NCBI GenBank assembly: GCA_016182605.1
Contig: JACPGE010000073.1
Location: 1-64,000 of the forward strand
Direction: 5' to 3'
DNA length: 64,000 nt
Source: Candidatus Hydrogenedentota bacterium
Lineage (GTDB): Bacteria; Hydrogenedentota; Hydrogenedentia; Hydrogenedentales; JAEUWI01
In this document: positions 2,089 through 8,490 of the stretch, one piece after another
Layout: each line of letters opens with the position of its first letter
How positions within the stretch are numbered: the first letter of the stretch is position 1
Notes under the pieces: model-generated
Told to the model about the DNA's origin: nothing
Databases searched by the model: none
Seen by the model: only the letters and a program-made list of their open reading frames with translations
Position numbers and translations under genes: made by a program

Positions 2089-2790
2089 TCAACCCAAGAG
2101 CCGGTTGCGTTCCCGCTCGTAGCACGTTGGGCAGTAGCCGTGCGAGATCCGGGCCTGCAGTTTGCTGCTGAAGTACTGATCCATCGGCTGCCATTCCTGT
2201 TCCGTGACCTTCACATTCTTGCAGTGGACGCAGACCTGGACGAAGGACTGCAGCATGCGAATGGTTTCGAGCGCCTCGGACATGCGGTGGAGCAGCGTGT
2301 CCCGCTCCCGGGCGAGTTGCCGTTCCTTGAGAATGCGCGCAATGGTGTTGGGGATGAGTTTGAGGTAGTGCCCGCCCACGTCCTTCACGAGGTAATCGGA
2401 GGCGCCGCTATTGAGGGCGTTCACCGCAACGCGTTCGTTTCCCACGCCGGTGATGAGGACGACGGAAATGCCGAGTTCCATCGCCTGTTCAATAATGGAG
2501 AGCCCCACGCCGTCGGGCAGATCGTGGTCGAGGAGAATCAGATCGATGCCTGGCTGAAGCATGCGGTCGCGCGCGGCGCGGAGATGTCCCACCGATTCCA
2601 CAGAGGCCACGCACCGTGTGGCAGCGGCGGTCTTTACCAGTGCGATCCGGTCTACAGCGTCATCATCGATGACGAGGATACGCAATGCGATTTCATCCTG
2701 AGCGGGGGGCGTCCGCTGTAATTCGCTGGAGCCGAAGAGGCTTCGAAGTTCCACAATCCAGGGCGGCGCGACGGTCGATTGGTGCGACAT
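2089..2790 (-). CDS. Response regulator with C-terminal Cys-rich output region
   Basis: This is a receiver-domain protein of 233 aa. The acidic pocket is DDD (42-44), the likely phosphoacceptor is D88 in LLDHDLPDG, with T114 and K136 completing the active site. After a linker/coiled-coil (about 150-180) comes a small region with CVHC (187-190) and HGYCPTC (217-223). This resembles the CxxC..HGxCPxC module found at the C-terminus of some signalling proteins, which may bind zinc; there is no classical DNA-binding domain. The start is supported by GGAGGTG just upstream. It lies 77 nt downstream of the kinase gene on the same strand, so it is probably the kinase's partner. Confidence 0.85.
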   Translation of the reverse strand: MSHQSTVAPPWIVELRSLFGSSELQRTPPAQDEIALRILVIDDDAVDRIALVKTAAATRCVASVESVGHLRAARDRMLQPGIDLILLDHDLPDGVGLSIIEQAMELGISVVLITGVGNERVAVNALNSGASDYLVKDVGGHYLKLIPNTIARILKERQLARERDTLLHRMSEALETIRMLQSFVQVCVHCKNVKVTEQEWQPMDQYFSSKLQARISHGYCPTCYERERNRLLG

Positions 2791-2867: not shown

Positions 2868-3938
2868 CTAATTTGGCCAGGTGAAGTAAAAGCGGCATCC
2901 GGCGCCGAGGGTCGATTCGACCCAGGCCACACCGCCGTTGCGTTCGACACAGCGCTTTACGATGGCCAGGCCGATTCCTGAATGGGCGGGGTTCTCCGTC
3001 TCTGAGGTGTGAAAGAGGCGAAACACGCGTTGAAGGGACTGCGGGTCGATGCCGGGCCCGTTGTCCTCAATGCAGAAAGTGTGAAATCTATTGCCGGAGA
3101 CGACGGAAATGCGAACAGCGCCCGAATCCGCATCGCAATAGCGCAGGGCATTCTCCAAGAGATTCTGAAAAATCTGATGAAGTTGGGTTTCGTTTCCACG
3201 AAGTTCGGGAAGAGCGCCCTGAATCCGAATGCGATTGCGCTGTTCTCCGGTGAGACTCAGCATGACTTCGTTGAGCACTTCGATCACCGGTACGGTTCGT
3301 TGAATCGAGGTGTTCCGCGCTATGCCGCTGTATTCGAGCACATCGTTGATCAGGCGATCCATTTTGTCCACACGGTGCTGCAACTGTATCAGCTTTTCCC
3401 GCGTGTCGGTACTGGCGCTGGAAAGATCGTCGTCGATCCATTCGGAAAGCCGGCGGATGCCCCGCAACGGCGCCTTCAGGTCGTGGGAGACGACATGCGC
3501 AAAATCTTCGAGATCGGTATTGGCCTGTTGGAGCTGCAGATTGACGGATTCGAGACCGGGCAGGCGCAACGCCAGGGGAATCGTACGGATGAGCGCGACA
3601 ACCGTGAGCCACGATACGAGCGCTGTAAGAATCTTCGCGAGGGCGCTGAGCCGGTAATTGGGCCACCAGAAGATGGAGGCCTCTATAAGATGGGTGGAGC
3701 CGCAGGCAACGATGAAGGCCCCGAAGAGCCAGAAGACCCTGGGAAAGGGCACGTCGGGGCGCCGGAGAACAAAAGAGACGATAACGATGGGGATCGCCAT
3801 ATACGCGCCCCAGATGAGCACGTCGGAGGAGATGTGCAGCCACCCCAGGAGGGAACTCCATTGGCCGCATTGCCAGCGGGGCGGAAAGCCGGAGGTGTCG
3901 AAGAGCAAGCCGGCGGAAAGCTGTGAAATGTCGAACAT
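2868..3938 (-). CDS. Membrane histidine kinase with ethylene-receptor-type sensor domain
   Basis: This is a 356-aa sensor kinase. The N-terminus has three membrane helices whose sequence matches plant/cyanobacterial ethylene-binding domains. D39, Y46, P50, I76, C79 and H83 align with ETR1 D25, Y32, P36, I62, C65 and H69 at a constant offset of 14. In ETR1 the Cys and His hold the copper cofactor. The kinase core follows: H152 in SHDLKAP, N-box around N263 (NLLENALRY), D292 in DNGPG, and a GIGLA box at 321-325. AGGAGT precedes the ATG. It forms an operon with the downstream response regulator. Ethylene sensing is an inference from the conserved residues. Confidence 0.88.
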   Translation of the reverse strand: MFDISQLSAGLLFDTSGFPPRWQCGQWSSLLGWLHISSDVLIWGAYMAIPIVIVSFVLRRPDVPFPRVFWLFGAFIVACGSTHLIEASIFWWPNYRLSALAKILTALVSWLTVVALIRTIPLALRLPGLESVNLQLQQANTDLEDFAHVVSHDLKAPLRGIRRLSEWIDDDLSSASTDTREKLIQLQHRVDKMDRLINDVLEYSGIARNTSIQRTVPVIEVLNEVMLSLTGEQRNRIRIQGALPELRGNETQLHQIFQNLLENALRYCDADSGAVRISVVSGNRFHTFCIEDNGPGIDPQSLQRVFRLFHTSETENPAHSGIGLAIVKRCVERNGGVAWVESTLGAGCRFYFTWPN

Positions 3939-4264: not shown

Positions 4265-6112
4265 ATGCGACACCGCCCCAAGCTTGTGTTTTCCCTCACG
4301 TGCGCCTTGTTCCTGTTGGCCCGGGCCGCCGTTGCGGTTGCGCCCGAAAAAATGCGGGCCGTGGCCGCGGAGCACAAAGCCGCGCTTCAATTGCAGACCT
4401 ACCTGACGGCGGACGCGGTCCGCCAGTTGGGGGAGGACGCGCCGGCACGCAAGGCATCGGCGGAGGCCTTTCACCGGCTCGGCATTCAGACAGTCATACT
4501 GGAGGTCTATCGCGGCGCAGTGCTTCCTTCAGACGCGGCGTTGACCGTGCTGCGGGACTTCTACCGTGAACAGGGCTTCGCGGTCATGGCGGGCATGGCC
4601 ACGGTTCCCGGGGAGGGCTTTGGCGTTGCCGCGAATACCGGGTTGCACTGGTTCAACTGGCAGGCGGCGAAGACCCGGGAAGACCTGGAGCCCGTGGTGC
4701 GGCGCGCGGCGCGGTTATTCGACCGCATCGTGATCGACGACTTTCTGTGCACGGGCGACACGAGCGATGAATCCGGGGAAGCGCGGGGGGATCGGAGCTG
4801 GAGCGCCTACCGCATGGATCTGCTCACCGGGCTTTCGCACAGTCTTTTCATCGGCCCGGCGAAAGAAGAGAATCCGGACGTCACCATGATCGTCAAGTAT
4901 CCGCAATGGTACGACCGCTATCATCAATTTGGATACGACGTGGAGCGGGAGCCCCAGCTTTTCGACGAGGTGTGGGTGGGCACGGAGACGCGGGGCGCGC
5001 GCACGCAGCGCTTCGGCTTTACCCAGCCCTACGAGGGATTTTTTGCCTACCGCTGGATGGAGAGCCTCGCCGGCGCGAAGCTCCAGTCGGCATGGTTCGA
5101 TCATGGCGATTGCACCGATATCGATTTTGTGGAGCAGGCGTGGCAGACCGTGCTCGCGGGCGCGAAGCAGATCGTGATCTTCAATGCGCAGGAAGTGATC
5201 GCGGGGCACAACGGCCATGACCGCTTGCGCGAGGACTTTGACGGGTTGGTGGAACTCGCGAAGGCCGTGGCGCTCCATCCGGTTTCGGGCGTGGCGAGTT
5301 ACAAGCCGGCCCACAGCGAGGCGGGCGGCGATCTCTACGTGAACGATTTCGTGGGCATGCTCGGCGTGCCCCTGGTGCCTTCCGCGCACTATCCGGACGA
5401 AGCGGCCAACCTCTTCCTGCCCGCGCAGGCCGCGCACGACCCGGATATCGTGAAGAAAATCGCCGCGTCGCTCGTGGCGGGGAAGAACGTGGTGGTGACC
5501 GCCAGCCTGATTGCGAGTGTGGCGGAGAGCGAGACGCTCTGCGAGTTGGCGGGATTGCAGGGGCCGCTAAAGTCCGATCCCTTTCGCACGGAGGCGCTGG
5601 TCTTCGGCGAGAGCCGCATTGCGGCGCAGAACGGCCTCGATCTGGAGGCGCGCCCCGTGGTGAGCACCGCCGAAGTGTTGCTGGCGGTCTATGACAACGA
5701 CACGGCGGTGCCCTTCCTGACGCGGCATCAGGTGGGGTCGGGCACGCTGAGCGTGCTGAACAGCCACACCTTCTCCCAGGCCGATTTCGACGCGGTCGGG
5801 GAGGTGCTCTTGTCCCCGCGCGATCTGGGGCTGCTCTATCTCCCGGCGAACTGGGCCGATGCGATTCGGGCGCTCTTCGGCGGCACGCCGGGTGTGAAGA
5901 TGAGCGCGCCGAGCCGCGTGACGCTCCAGCCGCTCGGGGCAACCGGTTGGTTTATCCAAAACTACAACGATACAGCGGCCAACATCCGCTTGGACTTCGA
6001 GCAGGCCGGGAAATATCTCATCCGCTTGCAGGGCGATCCCCGCACGGTGGAAGAGCAGACCCTGACACTGGAGATGGCCCCGCGCTCCCGGGTCTGGATC
6101 GCGAAGGAATAG
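4265..6112 (+). CDS. Secreted TIM-barrel hydrolase-like protein
   Basis: The protein has 615 aa with an N-terminal signal peptide (hydrophobic core about 8-24, cleavage near AVAVA). The body reads like a glycosidase-type barrel. Strand-like segments alternate with helices, and there is a conserved-looking acidic strand end FDRIVIDDFLCTGD (near residue 156), followed by YPQWYDRYHQFG and DEVWVGTETRG. The C-terminal ~70 residues look like a small beta domain. The family is not confidently named and catalytic residues are not assigned. It lies immediately upstream of another glycoside-hydrolase-like gene in the same direction (71-nt gap), which suggests a carbohydrate-utilisation operon. The Shine-Dalgarno is weak. 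Confidence 0.6.
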   Translation: MRHRPKLVFSLTCALFLLARAAVAVAPEKMRAVAAEHKAALQLQTYLTADAVRQLGEDAPARKASAEAFHRLGIQTVILEVYRGAVLPSDAALTVLRDFYREQGFAVMAGMATVPGEGFGVAANTGLHWFNWQAAKTREDLEPVVRRAARLFDRIVIDDFLCTGDTSDESGEARGDRSWSAYRMDLLTGLSHSLFIGPAKEENPDVTMIVKYPQWYDRYHQFGYDVEREPQLFDEVWVGTETRGARTQRFGFTQPYEGFFAYRWMESLAGAKLQSAWFDHGDCTDIDFVEQAWQTVLAGAKQIVIFNAQEVIAGHNGHDRLREDFDGLVELAKAVALHPVSGVASYKPAHSEAGGDLYVNDFVGMLGVPLVPSAHYPDEAANLFLPAQAAHDPDIVKKIAASLVAGKNVVVTASLIASVAESETLCELAGLQGPLKSDPFRTEALVFGESRIAAQNGLDLEARPVVSTAEVLLAVYDNDTAVPFLTRHQVGSGTLSVLNSHTFSQADFDAVGEVLLSPRDLGLLYLPANWADAIRALFGGTPGVKMSAPSRVTLQPLGATGWFIQNYNDTAANIRLDFEQAGKYLIRLQGDPRTVEEQTLTLEMAPRSRVWIAKE

Positions 6113-6183
6113 GGCGAAATCCGGGGGAGCGTCTCCAAGGCTGGGGACTCGGCCCTGAATGATCGATAGAAAGCAGGGTGCTT

Positions 6184-8490
6184 ATGGGCTGGCTGTTGTC
6201 TGGGCTGGTAGTGCTGGGGATTTTGGGGGCGGATCTTCCACAAGATGGGGTGCTGGCATTCGATGCCGCGGCGCCGGGAACGGCTGTCCTGCTGAACGGC
6301 AGGATCGAGGGCGTGGGGGACGCGGCCCACGTGGTGGCGGAAGACAGTACCGATCCCTACGCGCAGGTCTACCTGGAAATCCCGCTGCAGGGCCTCCCGG
6401 ATTCCCTGCCGGAAACGATCTTGCTCGAAGTGCGCTTTCACGATGAGGGCGCCTGTCTCATCGAGCCGGGTTTGCAGTGGGGGACGGAGAAGCTCCGCCT
6501 CGCACCCGTGCGCCGCTCCGGCTACACGCGCCTGAACACCCACGCGGAACGCACCGGGTGGTACGCCTTCACCTTGCCCGAAGCGGCACGAACTGCGCCA
6601 ACGCTCAGTTTCGTCTCCACCGGCCTTCAGCATGTGCGCAGCATACAGGTATTGCCGATGCCGGAAGAGGCTGCGTGGACCGCCCATGACGCGGCCATTC
6701 CCAAGAAGGTGGAGCCCATGGTGAGACTGAAGCGGCCCATTGAGGCCGTGACCACCGCGGGGGTCGATGTGCGTGGCGGGATGGACACCCTGGAGGCCTC
6801 GCTGAAGAACCTGAACGAGATTGCGCCGCTGACGCGGGTGCTGGGCTTTAGCTCCATCGAAAGCTATGTGACTTGGAAACGCCTCGAACCCAATGCGGAA
6901 GGAGACTTCGATTTCAGTTACTACGATGCGGTGGTAAAGAAGCTGGCGGAATACGATCTGAAATGGTTTCCATTGCTTATCGTGGGCTCGGCCTATGCCC
7001 TGCCCGAGTGGTTTCTCGATCACAAAGAGAACGTGGGGATGGTTTGTCTGGAGCACGGACTCTCCAACCCGGTGCAGAGCATCTGGTATGCGCCGCACCG
7101 CCGCCACGTGGAGCGCGTGCTGCATGCCTTTGGCGATCACTACGAGCCGATGGGCGTGATCGAAGGCGTGCGCCTGGGACCCAGCGGAAACTATGGCGAA
7201 TCCCAGTATCCGGCCGGCGGCAACTGGGGCATTCGGGGCAACGAAATGCACATCCACATCGGGTGGTGGGCCGGCGACCCCTATGCGCTGCAGGATTTCC
7301 GGCGCTTCCTCCTCGAGAAGTACGGCACGCTCGACGCCCTCAACGCGGCGTGGGAATCCCACTATGCGGCAATCGGCGACGTGCGGCCGGAACTGCCCAG
7401 CAGCAACTATATTATGCGGCGCCGGCTCGACTTCACCCAGTGGTACACCGATTCCATGACCCAATGGTGCGAGTGGTGGGGGGAGGTGGCGCGCGCGGCC
7501 CTGCCGAAGACGGTGATTTACCAATCCGCCGGGGGTTGGGGCTTCCGCGAATCGGGCACGGACTACAGCGGCCAGGCGAAGTCCATGGTCAAGATCGACG
7601 GCGGCATCCGCCTTACGAACGAGACAGACAGCTACGAGCAAAATATATACGCGACACGGCTTGCGACGACCGCGGCGAAATTCTACGGACTGGATATTGG
7701 TTTTGAGCCCGCGAGTTCCCACACGGCGCGGGGTGTGGTGGGGCGGCTCTACAACCTGATTGCGACGGATGGCCGCCACTTCTTCACCTACGAGGGCAAC
7801 ATCATCAATCACCCCATGGAAGTGGAGCGGTGGCTGAAGTACCTCCCGCTGGCCGAGACGCGCCAGAGGCCCGTGGTCGATGTGGCGGTCTACTACCCGG
7901 AGACTGCCAACCAGATCGACGACGGCGCGTTTCGCCATCTGTATGCCTGGGGCTTCAATCCCCGGGCCGCGGCCGTGCGCCGCGTGGTGGACGTGGACTA
8001 CCTGGATGAGCGCCTCATTCGCGAAGGCGCGCTGGACCAGTACAAGGTGCTCGTCTTCGCTTGGGGCGACACCCTGGAAGAAGACGTGCTCCAGGCGATG
8101 GATGCGTGGGTGCAGCGCGGCGGCGTGTTGATTTATCCGGCCTTCCCGCGCGGATTGGCGGGCATGATCGAAGGAGACACGGCCATCTTCAAACGATGGC
8201 AGGCGGGGGAGACGGGCCAGGGCGCCTTTCACCGCTTTCAGGGGGACATGGAGCCCACGAGCGAGTACGGCGATTTCGTGAAGAAGGTATTGGCGGGCGT
8301 GCCAACGCTGGATGCCCGTGTGCAGGCCGTGCTGAAAATCAATGCGCCGGATCAGGTCTTTTTTACGGTGCAAGAAGACGGCCATGCGATCGCCCTGAAT
8401 TATCGCGACGAGGCGGTGACGCTTGCGGTGCCCGGCGCGGGAAACCTGACGATTGAACCCTATGGGATCGCGCGCTTCAGGACGGAGTGA
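6184..8490 (+). CDS. GH42/GH14-like glycoside hydrolase, secreted
   Basis: The protein has 768 aa. The N-terminal ~20 residues are hydrophobic (signal peptide or anchor), then a beta-sandwich-like region precedes a TIM barrel. The barrel carries NYGESQYP, with E339 as candidate acid/base, in a context (GPSGNYGES) reminiscent of the GPAGE box of GH14 beta-amylases and of GH42 barrels. Residues about 564-680 (VVDVAVYYPE to GGVLIYPAFPRG) look like the glutamine-amidotransferase-like trimerisation domain of GH42 enzymes. The substrate is not deducible. ATG 6184 is preferred to GTG 6178. It is probably co-transcribed with the 4265 gene. Confidence 0.7.
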   Translation: MGWLLSGLVVLGILGADLPQDGVLAFDAAAPGTAVLLNGRIEGVGDAAHVVAEDSTDPYAQVYLEIPLQGLPDSLPETILLEVRFHDEGACLIEPGLQWGTEKLRLAPVRRSGYTRLNTHAERTGWYAFTLPEAARTAPTLSFVSTGLQHVRSIQVLPMPEEAAWTAHDAAIPKKVEPMVRLKRPIEAVTTAGVDVRGGMDTLEASLKNLNEIAPLTRVLGFSSIESYVTWKRLEPNAEGDFDFSYYDAVVKKLAEYDLKWFPLLIVGSAYALPEWFLDHKENVGMVCLEHGLSNPVQSIWYAPHRRHVERVLHAFGDHYEPMGVIEGVRLGPSGNYGESQYPAGGNWGIRGNEMHIHIGWWAGDPYALQDFRRFLLEKYGTLDALNAAWESHYAAIGDVRPELPSSNYIMRRRLDFTQWYTDSMTQWCEWWGEVARAALPKTVIYQSAGGWGFRESGTDYSGQAKSMVKIDGGIRLTNETDSYEQNIYATRLATTAAKFYGLDIGFEPASSHTARGVVGRLYNLIATDGRHFFTYEGNIINHPMEVERWLKYLPLAETRQRPVVDVAVYYPETANQIDDGAFRHLYAWGFNPRAAAVRRVVDVDYLDERLIREGALDQYKVLVFAWGDTLEEDVLQAMDAWVQRGGVLIYPAFPRGLAGMIEGDTAIFKRWQAGETGQGAFHRFQGDMEPTSEYGDFVKKVLAGVPTLDARVQAVLKINAPDQVFFTVQEDGHAIALNYRDEAVTLAVPGAGNLTIEPYGIARFRTE

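What the first reader, a model, noticed from the sequence alone, without database searches (positions are those of the whole stretch)
2868..3938. Bacterial kinase with the complete ethylene-receptor copper/ligand site
All residues known to be important in the ETR1 binding pocket (Asp25, Tyr32, Ile62, Cys65, His69) align at a fixed offset, plus Pro36. The kinase domain is orthodox, and the partner regulator ends in a Cys-rich module rather than a DNA-binding domain. This suggests ethylene or another small-molecule/copper sensing in a free-living bacterium that is not a cyanobacterium.
Basis: partly seen in the sequence, partly recalled or inferred. Interest (0 to 1): 0.7.

Follow-up and report, generated by a model that had tools for sequence, protein, structure and literature searches.

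The report
Bacterial ethylene-receptor-type sensor kinase
This bacterium carries a sensor kinase with the same copper and ethylene binding site as the plant ethylene receptor ETR1; it is a real but ordinary member of a protein family that is already known in many bacteria, here paired with a regulator whose cysteine-rich tail has no name in the libraries searched.

Summary
The ORF at 2868-3938 (-) encodes 356 aa: an N-terminal Pfam ETR1_N domain (123 bits, E 5e-36), then HisKA and HATPase_c. All seven residues that ETR1 needs to bind ethylene (D25 Y32 I35 P36 I62 C65 H69) are present, plus K91. AlphaFold gives three membrane helices running into a coiled-coil kinase. Best reading: a copper-dependent ethylene sensor kinase signalling to the regulator 78 bp downstream. 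Binding itself is inferred.

It is not unusual in kind. One scan found 80 further loci in Planctomycetota, Bacteroidota, Verrucomicrobiota and Cyanobacteriota, almost all with the full site. AzoEtr1 of the non-cyanobacterium Azospirillum brasilense is an experimentally proven ethylene receptor with the same domain (42% identity to the window). Within the window's phylum only its own family carries the domain (4 of 68 genomes).

The regulator's Cys-rich tail is real and conserved, but it is not an ethylene part. The genome has about 10 copies on receiver, PAS and membrane proteins, and families of the phylum without the ethylene domain have it too. It matched no Pfam, NCBIfam or PDB entry by sequence. 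Verdict: new member of a known kind.

The parts
2868..3938 (-). Ethylene-receptor-type sensor histidine kinase, 356 aa, whole ORF
   Evidence: ETR1_N + HisKA + HATPase_c
3561..3860 (-). Ethylene-binding domain (aa 27-126): three predicted membrane helices 29-59, 66-88, 95-125; copper ligands C79 (3702-3704) and H83 (3690-3692); pocket D39, Y46, I49, P50, I76; K102
3327..3512 (-). HisKA dimerisation/phosphoacceptor domain, H152, joined to the third membrane helix by a coiled coil (helix 129-174), with no PAS or GAF between
2874..3197 (-). HATPase_c catalytic ATP-binding domain
2089..2790 (-). Partner response regulator, 233 aa, starting 78 bp after the kinase on the same strand
2374..2679 (-). 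Receiver domain of the regulator (aa 38-139, phosphoacceptor D88)
2089..2280 (-). C-terminal module: end of a coiled coil plus CxxC (C187, C190), beta hairpin, helix, H217, CPxC (C220, C223), helix; zinc-ribbon/treble-clef-like, no named family

Best explanation
The locus encodes a minimal two-component ethylene-sensing system. The 356-aa protein sits in the inner membrane through a three-helix ethylene-binding domain in which C79 and H83 hold Cu(I), with D39, Y46, I49, P50 and I76 lining the site. Ethylene (or a like small olefin) binding at the copper changes the coiled coil that leads directly into the kinase, and so alters autophosphorylation of H152. From what is known of ETR1 and inferred for SynEtr1, it most likely lowers it. 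The phosphate passes to D88 of the regulator encoded just downstream, whose output is carried by a coiled-coil plus four-Cys module, probably a zinc-binding protein-protein interaction module rather than a DNA-binding domain. Shown here: domain identity, full set of site residues, intact kinase and receiver motifs, predicted fold, gene pairing. Inferred: copper and ethylene binding, sign of the response, cognate phosphotransfer, zinc binding, and what the module does.
For: ETR1_N at E 5e-36. All seven binding residues and K91 present, and near-invariant in 86 bacterial homologues: C65 and H69 in 86/86; D25 in all 83 and Y32 in all 84 sequences that reach those columns. AzoEtr1, with the same residues, shows saturable 14C-ethylene binding (PMC11819568); the window's domain is 42% identical to AzoEtr1 and 37% to ETR1. 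AlphaFold: mean pLDDT 90.7, helices 29-59, 66-88, 95-125, then a continuous coiled coil into the kinase; the cytoplasmic part matches solved kinases such as ZraS and HK853. The regulator follows on the same strand; AzoEtr1 and many Bacteroidota relatives also have a receiver gene directly downstream. A copper P-type ATPase is present in the genome, though such pumps are near universal.
Against: Conservation of the site shows family membership, not the natural ligand. No ethylene-linked or copper-linked gene lies beside the pair (neighbours: Cas6-like gene, glycoside hydrolase-like gene). The domain is patchy in the phylum (4 of 68 genomes). Model coordinates could not be inspected, so the pocket geometry was not measured.
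Confidence: 0.8

Rival explanations
1. The domain holds Cu(I) in the same site but the natural signal is copper itself, redox state/oxygen, or another small molecule; ethylene binding is incidental.
For: Ethylene is not an obvious cue for a heterotroph without a known plant partner. The Cu ligands C79/H83 are the most conserved residues of all (86/86). The idea that ethylene sensing grew from copper handling is mentioned in PMC10452086.
Against: The non-metal pocket residues (Y32, I35, P36, I62) are conserved nearly as strictly as the metal ligands, and the two best-studied bacterial members (SynEtr1, AzoEtr1) respond to ethylene (PMC11819568).
Confidence: 0.15
2. A degenerate or decoupled ethylene-binding domain: it folds but no longer senses, and the kinase is driven by something else.
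For: The protein has no PAS relay as in several family relatives, and its branch in the domain tree is fairly long (0.57).
Against: No site residue is lost. Many other bacterial members also join the domain straight to the kinase. The kinase and receiver motifs are intact.
Confidence: 0.05

Closest known systems
AzoEtr1 of Azospirillum brasilense (PMC11819568; frame read at L107)
   Same: Same ETR1_N domain with all seven binding residues, same N-terminal FDTS...C...SD region, histidine kinase, receiver gene directly downstream; non-cyanobacterial.
   Different: AzoEtr1 has a PAS domain between the ethylene domain and the kinase; its regulator is a receiver alone (135 aa by the paper) without a Cys module; 42% identity in the sensor region.
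SynEtr1 (slr1212) / slr1213 of Synechocystis (from papers)
   Same: Ethylene-binding domain plus histidine kinase signalling by phosphotransfer to a neighbouring regulator.
   Different: SynEtr1 also senses light through a GAF domain, and its regulator activates transcription of a small RNA; the window protein has no light domain and its regulator shows no DNA-binding domain.
Plant ETR1/ERS1
   Same: The three-helix copper/ethylene site, residue for residue (37% identity over 103 positions).
   Different: Plant receptors act mainly through CTR1, with a GAF domain; here a plain bacterial kinase/regulator pair.
Minimal ethylene-domain kinases of Bacteroidota (e.g. Spirosoma L050, 388 aa) and of Planctomycetota/Verrucomicrobiota (L030, L015)
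   Same: Same minimal layout: ethylene domain straight into HisKA/HATPase_c, about 355-415 aa, often with a receiver gene next door.
   Different: Their downstream receivers lack the Cys module (a Spartobacterium, L012, has it); Bacteroidota mostly have Arg in place of K91.

Membership tests
Ethylene-receptor-type (ETR1_N / EBD) sensor kinases | Significant match to the ethylene-binding domain profile | tested here: met
   PF25487, 123 bits against cut-off 27
Ethylene-receptor-type (ETR1_N / EBD) sensor kinases | Seven residues needed for ethylene binding (D25 Y32 I35 P36 I62 C65 H69) | tested here: met
   All present; seven residues are cited from Wang et al. 2006 in PMC11819568 and PMC6944256; which seven is partly from own knowledge
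Ethylene-receptor-type (ETR1_N / EBD) sensor kinases | Three transmembrane helices at the N-terminus | tested here: met
   AlphaFold helices 29-59, 66-88, 95-125, pLDDT about 90-97 over most of the domain
Ethylene-receptor-type (ETR1_N / EBD) sensor kinases | Copper-dependent, saturable ethylene binding | not testable with these tools
   Needs a radioligand assay
Two-component system (HisKA kinase + receiver partner) | HisKA with phosphoacceptor His, HATPase_c, adjacent receiver with phosphoacceptor Asp | tested here: met
   H152 and D88 read from sequence
Two-component system (HisKA kinase + receiver partner) | Phosphotransfer between this kinase and this regulator | not testable with these tools
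   Only adjacency and strand are shown (78 bp apart)
Transcription-factor response regulators (OmpR/NarL/NtrC type) | A DNA-binding output domain | tested here: not met
   No DNA-binding family matched after the receiver
Known zinc-ribbon families | Match of the Cys module to a named Pfam/NCBIfam family or PDB chain | tested here: inconclusive
   Only sub-threshold hits, several to zinc ribbons; none in NCBIfam above cut-off; no PDB sequence relative; Foldseek no confident match

The most novel reading that the evidence does not exclude
An ethylene receptor outside plants and cyanobacteria that signals not to DNA but through an undescribed coiled-coil/four-Cys output module, which this phylum uses as a common endpoint for many receptors (receiver, PAS, membrane receptor-like proteins).
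Probability: 0.25. Interest if true: 0.45.

Novelty: new member of a known kind. Interest (0 to 1): 0.25.

Why it matters
If it binds ethylene it adds one more phylum to the bacteria that can sense this gas, and a very small (356 aa) receptor, easier to study than ETR1. The more open question is the recurring Cys module: an unnamed signalling endpoint that would, if understood, explain the output of a whole class of receptors in this phylum.

Tried and rejected
Ethylene-specific role for the Cys module: rejected, because it occurs 10 times in the genome and in families of the phylum without the ethylene domain (G010, G012, G035). Named fold for the module: Foldseek best E 4.9 and VIA-align only a helix match over residues 1-35; no named relative found, which does not show a new fold. 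Copper or ethylene genes next to the pair: none. Viral relatives: none (close relatives only). Naming the phylum: the genome's phylum has one order among 68 held genomes, which fits Hydrogenedentota from memory, but this was not tested; the 16S pieces were not placed. Origin by gene transfer: the domain tree (126 columns) has too few resolved forks near the window to say. Promoter scan: nothing found. Literature on the module: nothing found with one search.

Full report
Observation. The window's ORF 2868-3938 on the minus strand encodes 356 aa. Pfam gives ETR1_N at aa 31-126 (123.3 bits, E 5.2e-36), HisKA at 143-204 and HATPase_c at 248-355. It is the only ETR1_N match in the 6.76-Mb genome, and 14 control genomes have none. 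I49 (ETR1 I35), also one of the seven binding residues, matches too, and K102 stands at the place of K91. The ETR1 sequence was supplied from memory; the AzoEtr1 frame read from a public A. brasilense Sp7 plasmid aligns in the same register and agrees with the numbering in the paper (D35, C75, H79).

Fold. With an alignment of 50 sequences AlphaFold gives mean pLDDT 90.7: helices 29-59, 66-88 and 95-125, then a continuous helix 129-174 into the kinase. The cytoplasmic half matches solved kinases (ZraS, HK853). There is no PAS or GAF domain between sensor and kinase, unlike AzoEtr1 and several of the family relatives.

How common it is. One scan of genome contigs gave 96 confirmed relatives, 80 kept: Planctomycetota, Bacteroidota, Verrucomicrobiota, Cyanobacteriota. 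Plasmid records add Alphaproteobacteria such as Azospirillum, Novosphingobium and Rhizobium. In 86 aligned domains C65 and H69 are in all, and D25 and Y32 are in all that reach those columns; K91 is Lys in 40 and Arg in 45. The complete site is thus the rule for the family and not a distinguishing mark of this protein. Published work already states that putative ethylene receptors occur in other bacterial phyla and with varied outputs (PMC11819568, PMC7700396), and AzoEtr1 is shown to bind ethylene and affect biofilm and root colonisation. In the window's own phylum, 4 of 68 genomes carry the domain, all in the window's family.

Partner. The regulator 2089-2790 (-) begins 78 bp after the kinase stop, same strand. 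It has a receiver domain and a tail with no DNA-binding family. The tail has an invariant pattern C-x2-C ... W ... Y ... H-x2-C-P-x-C, with only sub-threshold Pfam and NCBIfam matches and no PDB sequence relative. The model is a long helix, a hairpin and two helices with the Cys pairs at hairpin and helix start, as in zinc ribbons or treble clefs; metal binding is inferred. The same module occurs 10 times in this genome, on receivers, a PAS protein and large membrane proteins, 6-11 times in family members, 2-3 times in other families of the phylum that lack the ethylene domain, and not in the Bacteroidota and cyanobacterial ethylene-domain genomes tested. It is linked to ethylene-domain kinases in three other family genomes (ethylene domain-PAS-kinase, receiver, receiver-Cys) and in a Spartobacterium, but also follows other kinases. 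It is therefore a general output part of this lineage.

Mechanism. Best supported: Cu(I) held by C79/H83 binds ethylene, the helices and coiled coil shift, kinase activity at H152 changes (probably falls), and phosphate flow to D88 of the regulator changes; the Cys module then acts through a partner not identified here. Shown: sequence identity, motifs, predicted fold, pairing. Not shown: ligand, metal, direction, phosphotransfer, output.

Verdict. Real, correctly read by the first stage, but a new member of a known kind. The unnamed Cys module and the split receptors seen in Bacteroidota (listed among things noticed) are the parts a specialist may not have seen.

Noticed in passing
L036, L037, L039-L044, L046-L049, L053-L056, L058, L060, L067, L077 (around 5926-6405 in most): In about 20 Bacteroidota (Algoriphagus, Aquiflexum, Cyclobacterium, Marivirga, Ekhidna and others) the ethylene-binding domain is a separate gene of about 160 aa with a coiled-coil tail, followed at once by a histidine kinase gene with its own hydrophobic N-terminal segments and, in most, a receiver gene: a split receptor. 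A Planctomycetota contig (L016) has a similar layout.
   Followed up: partly
L098-L105 and window 2089-2280: Recurring C-terminal coiled-coil/four-Cys module on receiver, PAS and multi-pass membrane proteins (7TMR-like by eye), with no named family; about 10 copies in the genome.
   Followed up: partly
aligned position K91 of ETR1 in L025-L090: Most Bacteroidota ethylene domains have Arg where ETR1, AzoEtr1, the cyanobacterial and most Planctomycetota members and the window have Lys; this position is said to matter for receptor output.
   Followed up: no
L007 4621-8174: Two ethylene-domain kinases in tandem in G001, a relative of the window, followed by a receiver and a receiver-Cys gene.
   Followed up: no
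679-1683: Cas6-like endoribonuclease ORF (Pfam 27.2 bits against cut-off 25) near the contig start; a piece of its C-terminal coding sequence is repeated at 433-461, and no CRISPR array was seen in the first 2.1 kb.
   Followed up: partly
window 3867-3869 (aa 24 of the kinase): A near-invariant Cys (PRWxCGxW) lies before the first membrane helix in bacterial members, also in AzoEtr1 (C20); possibly a counterpart of the ETR1 N-terminal Cys pair.
   Followed up: no
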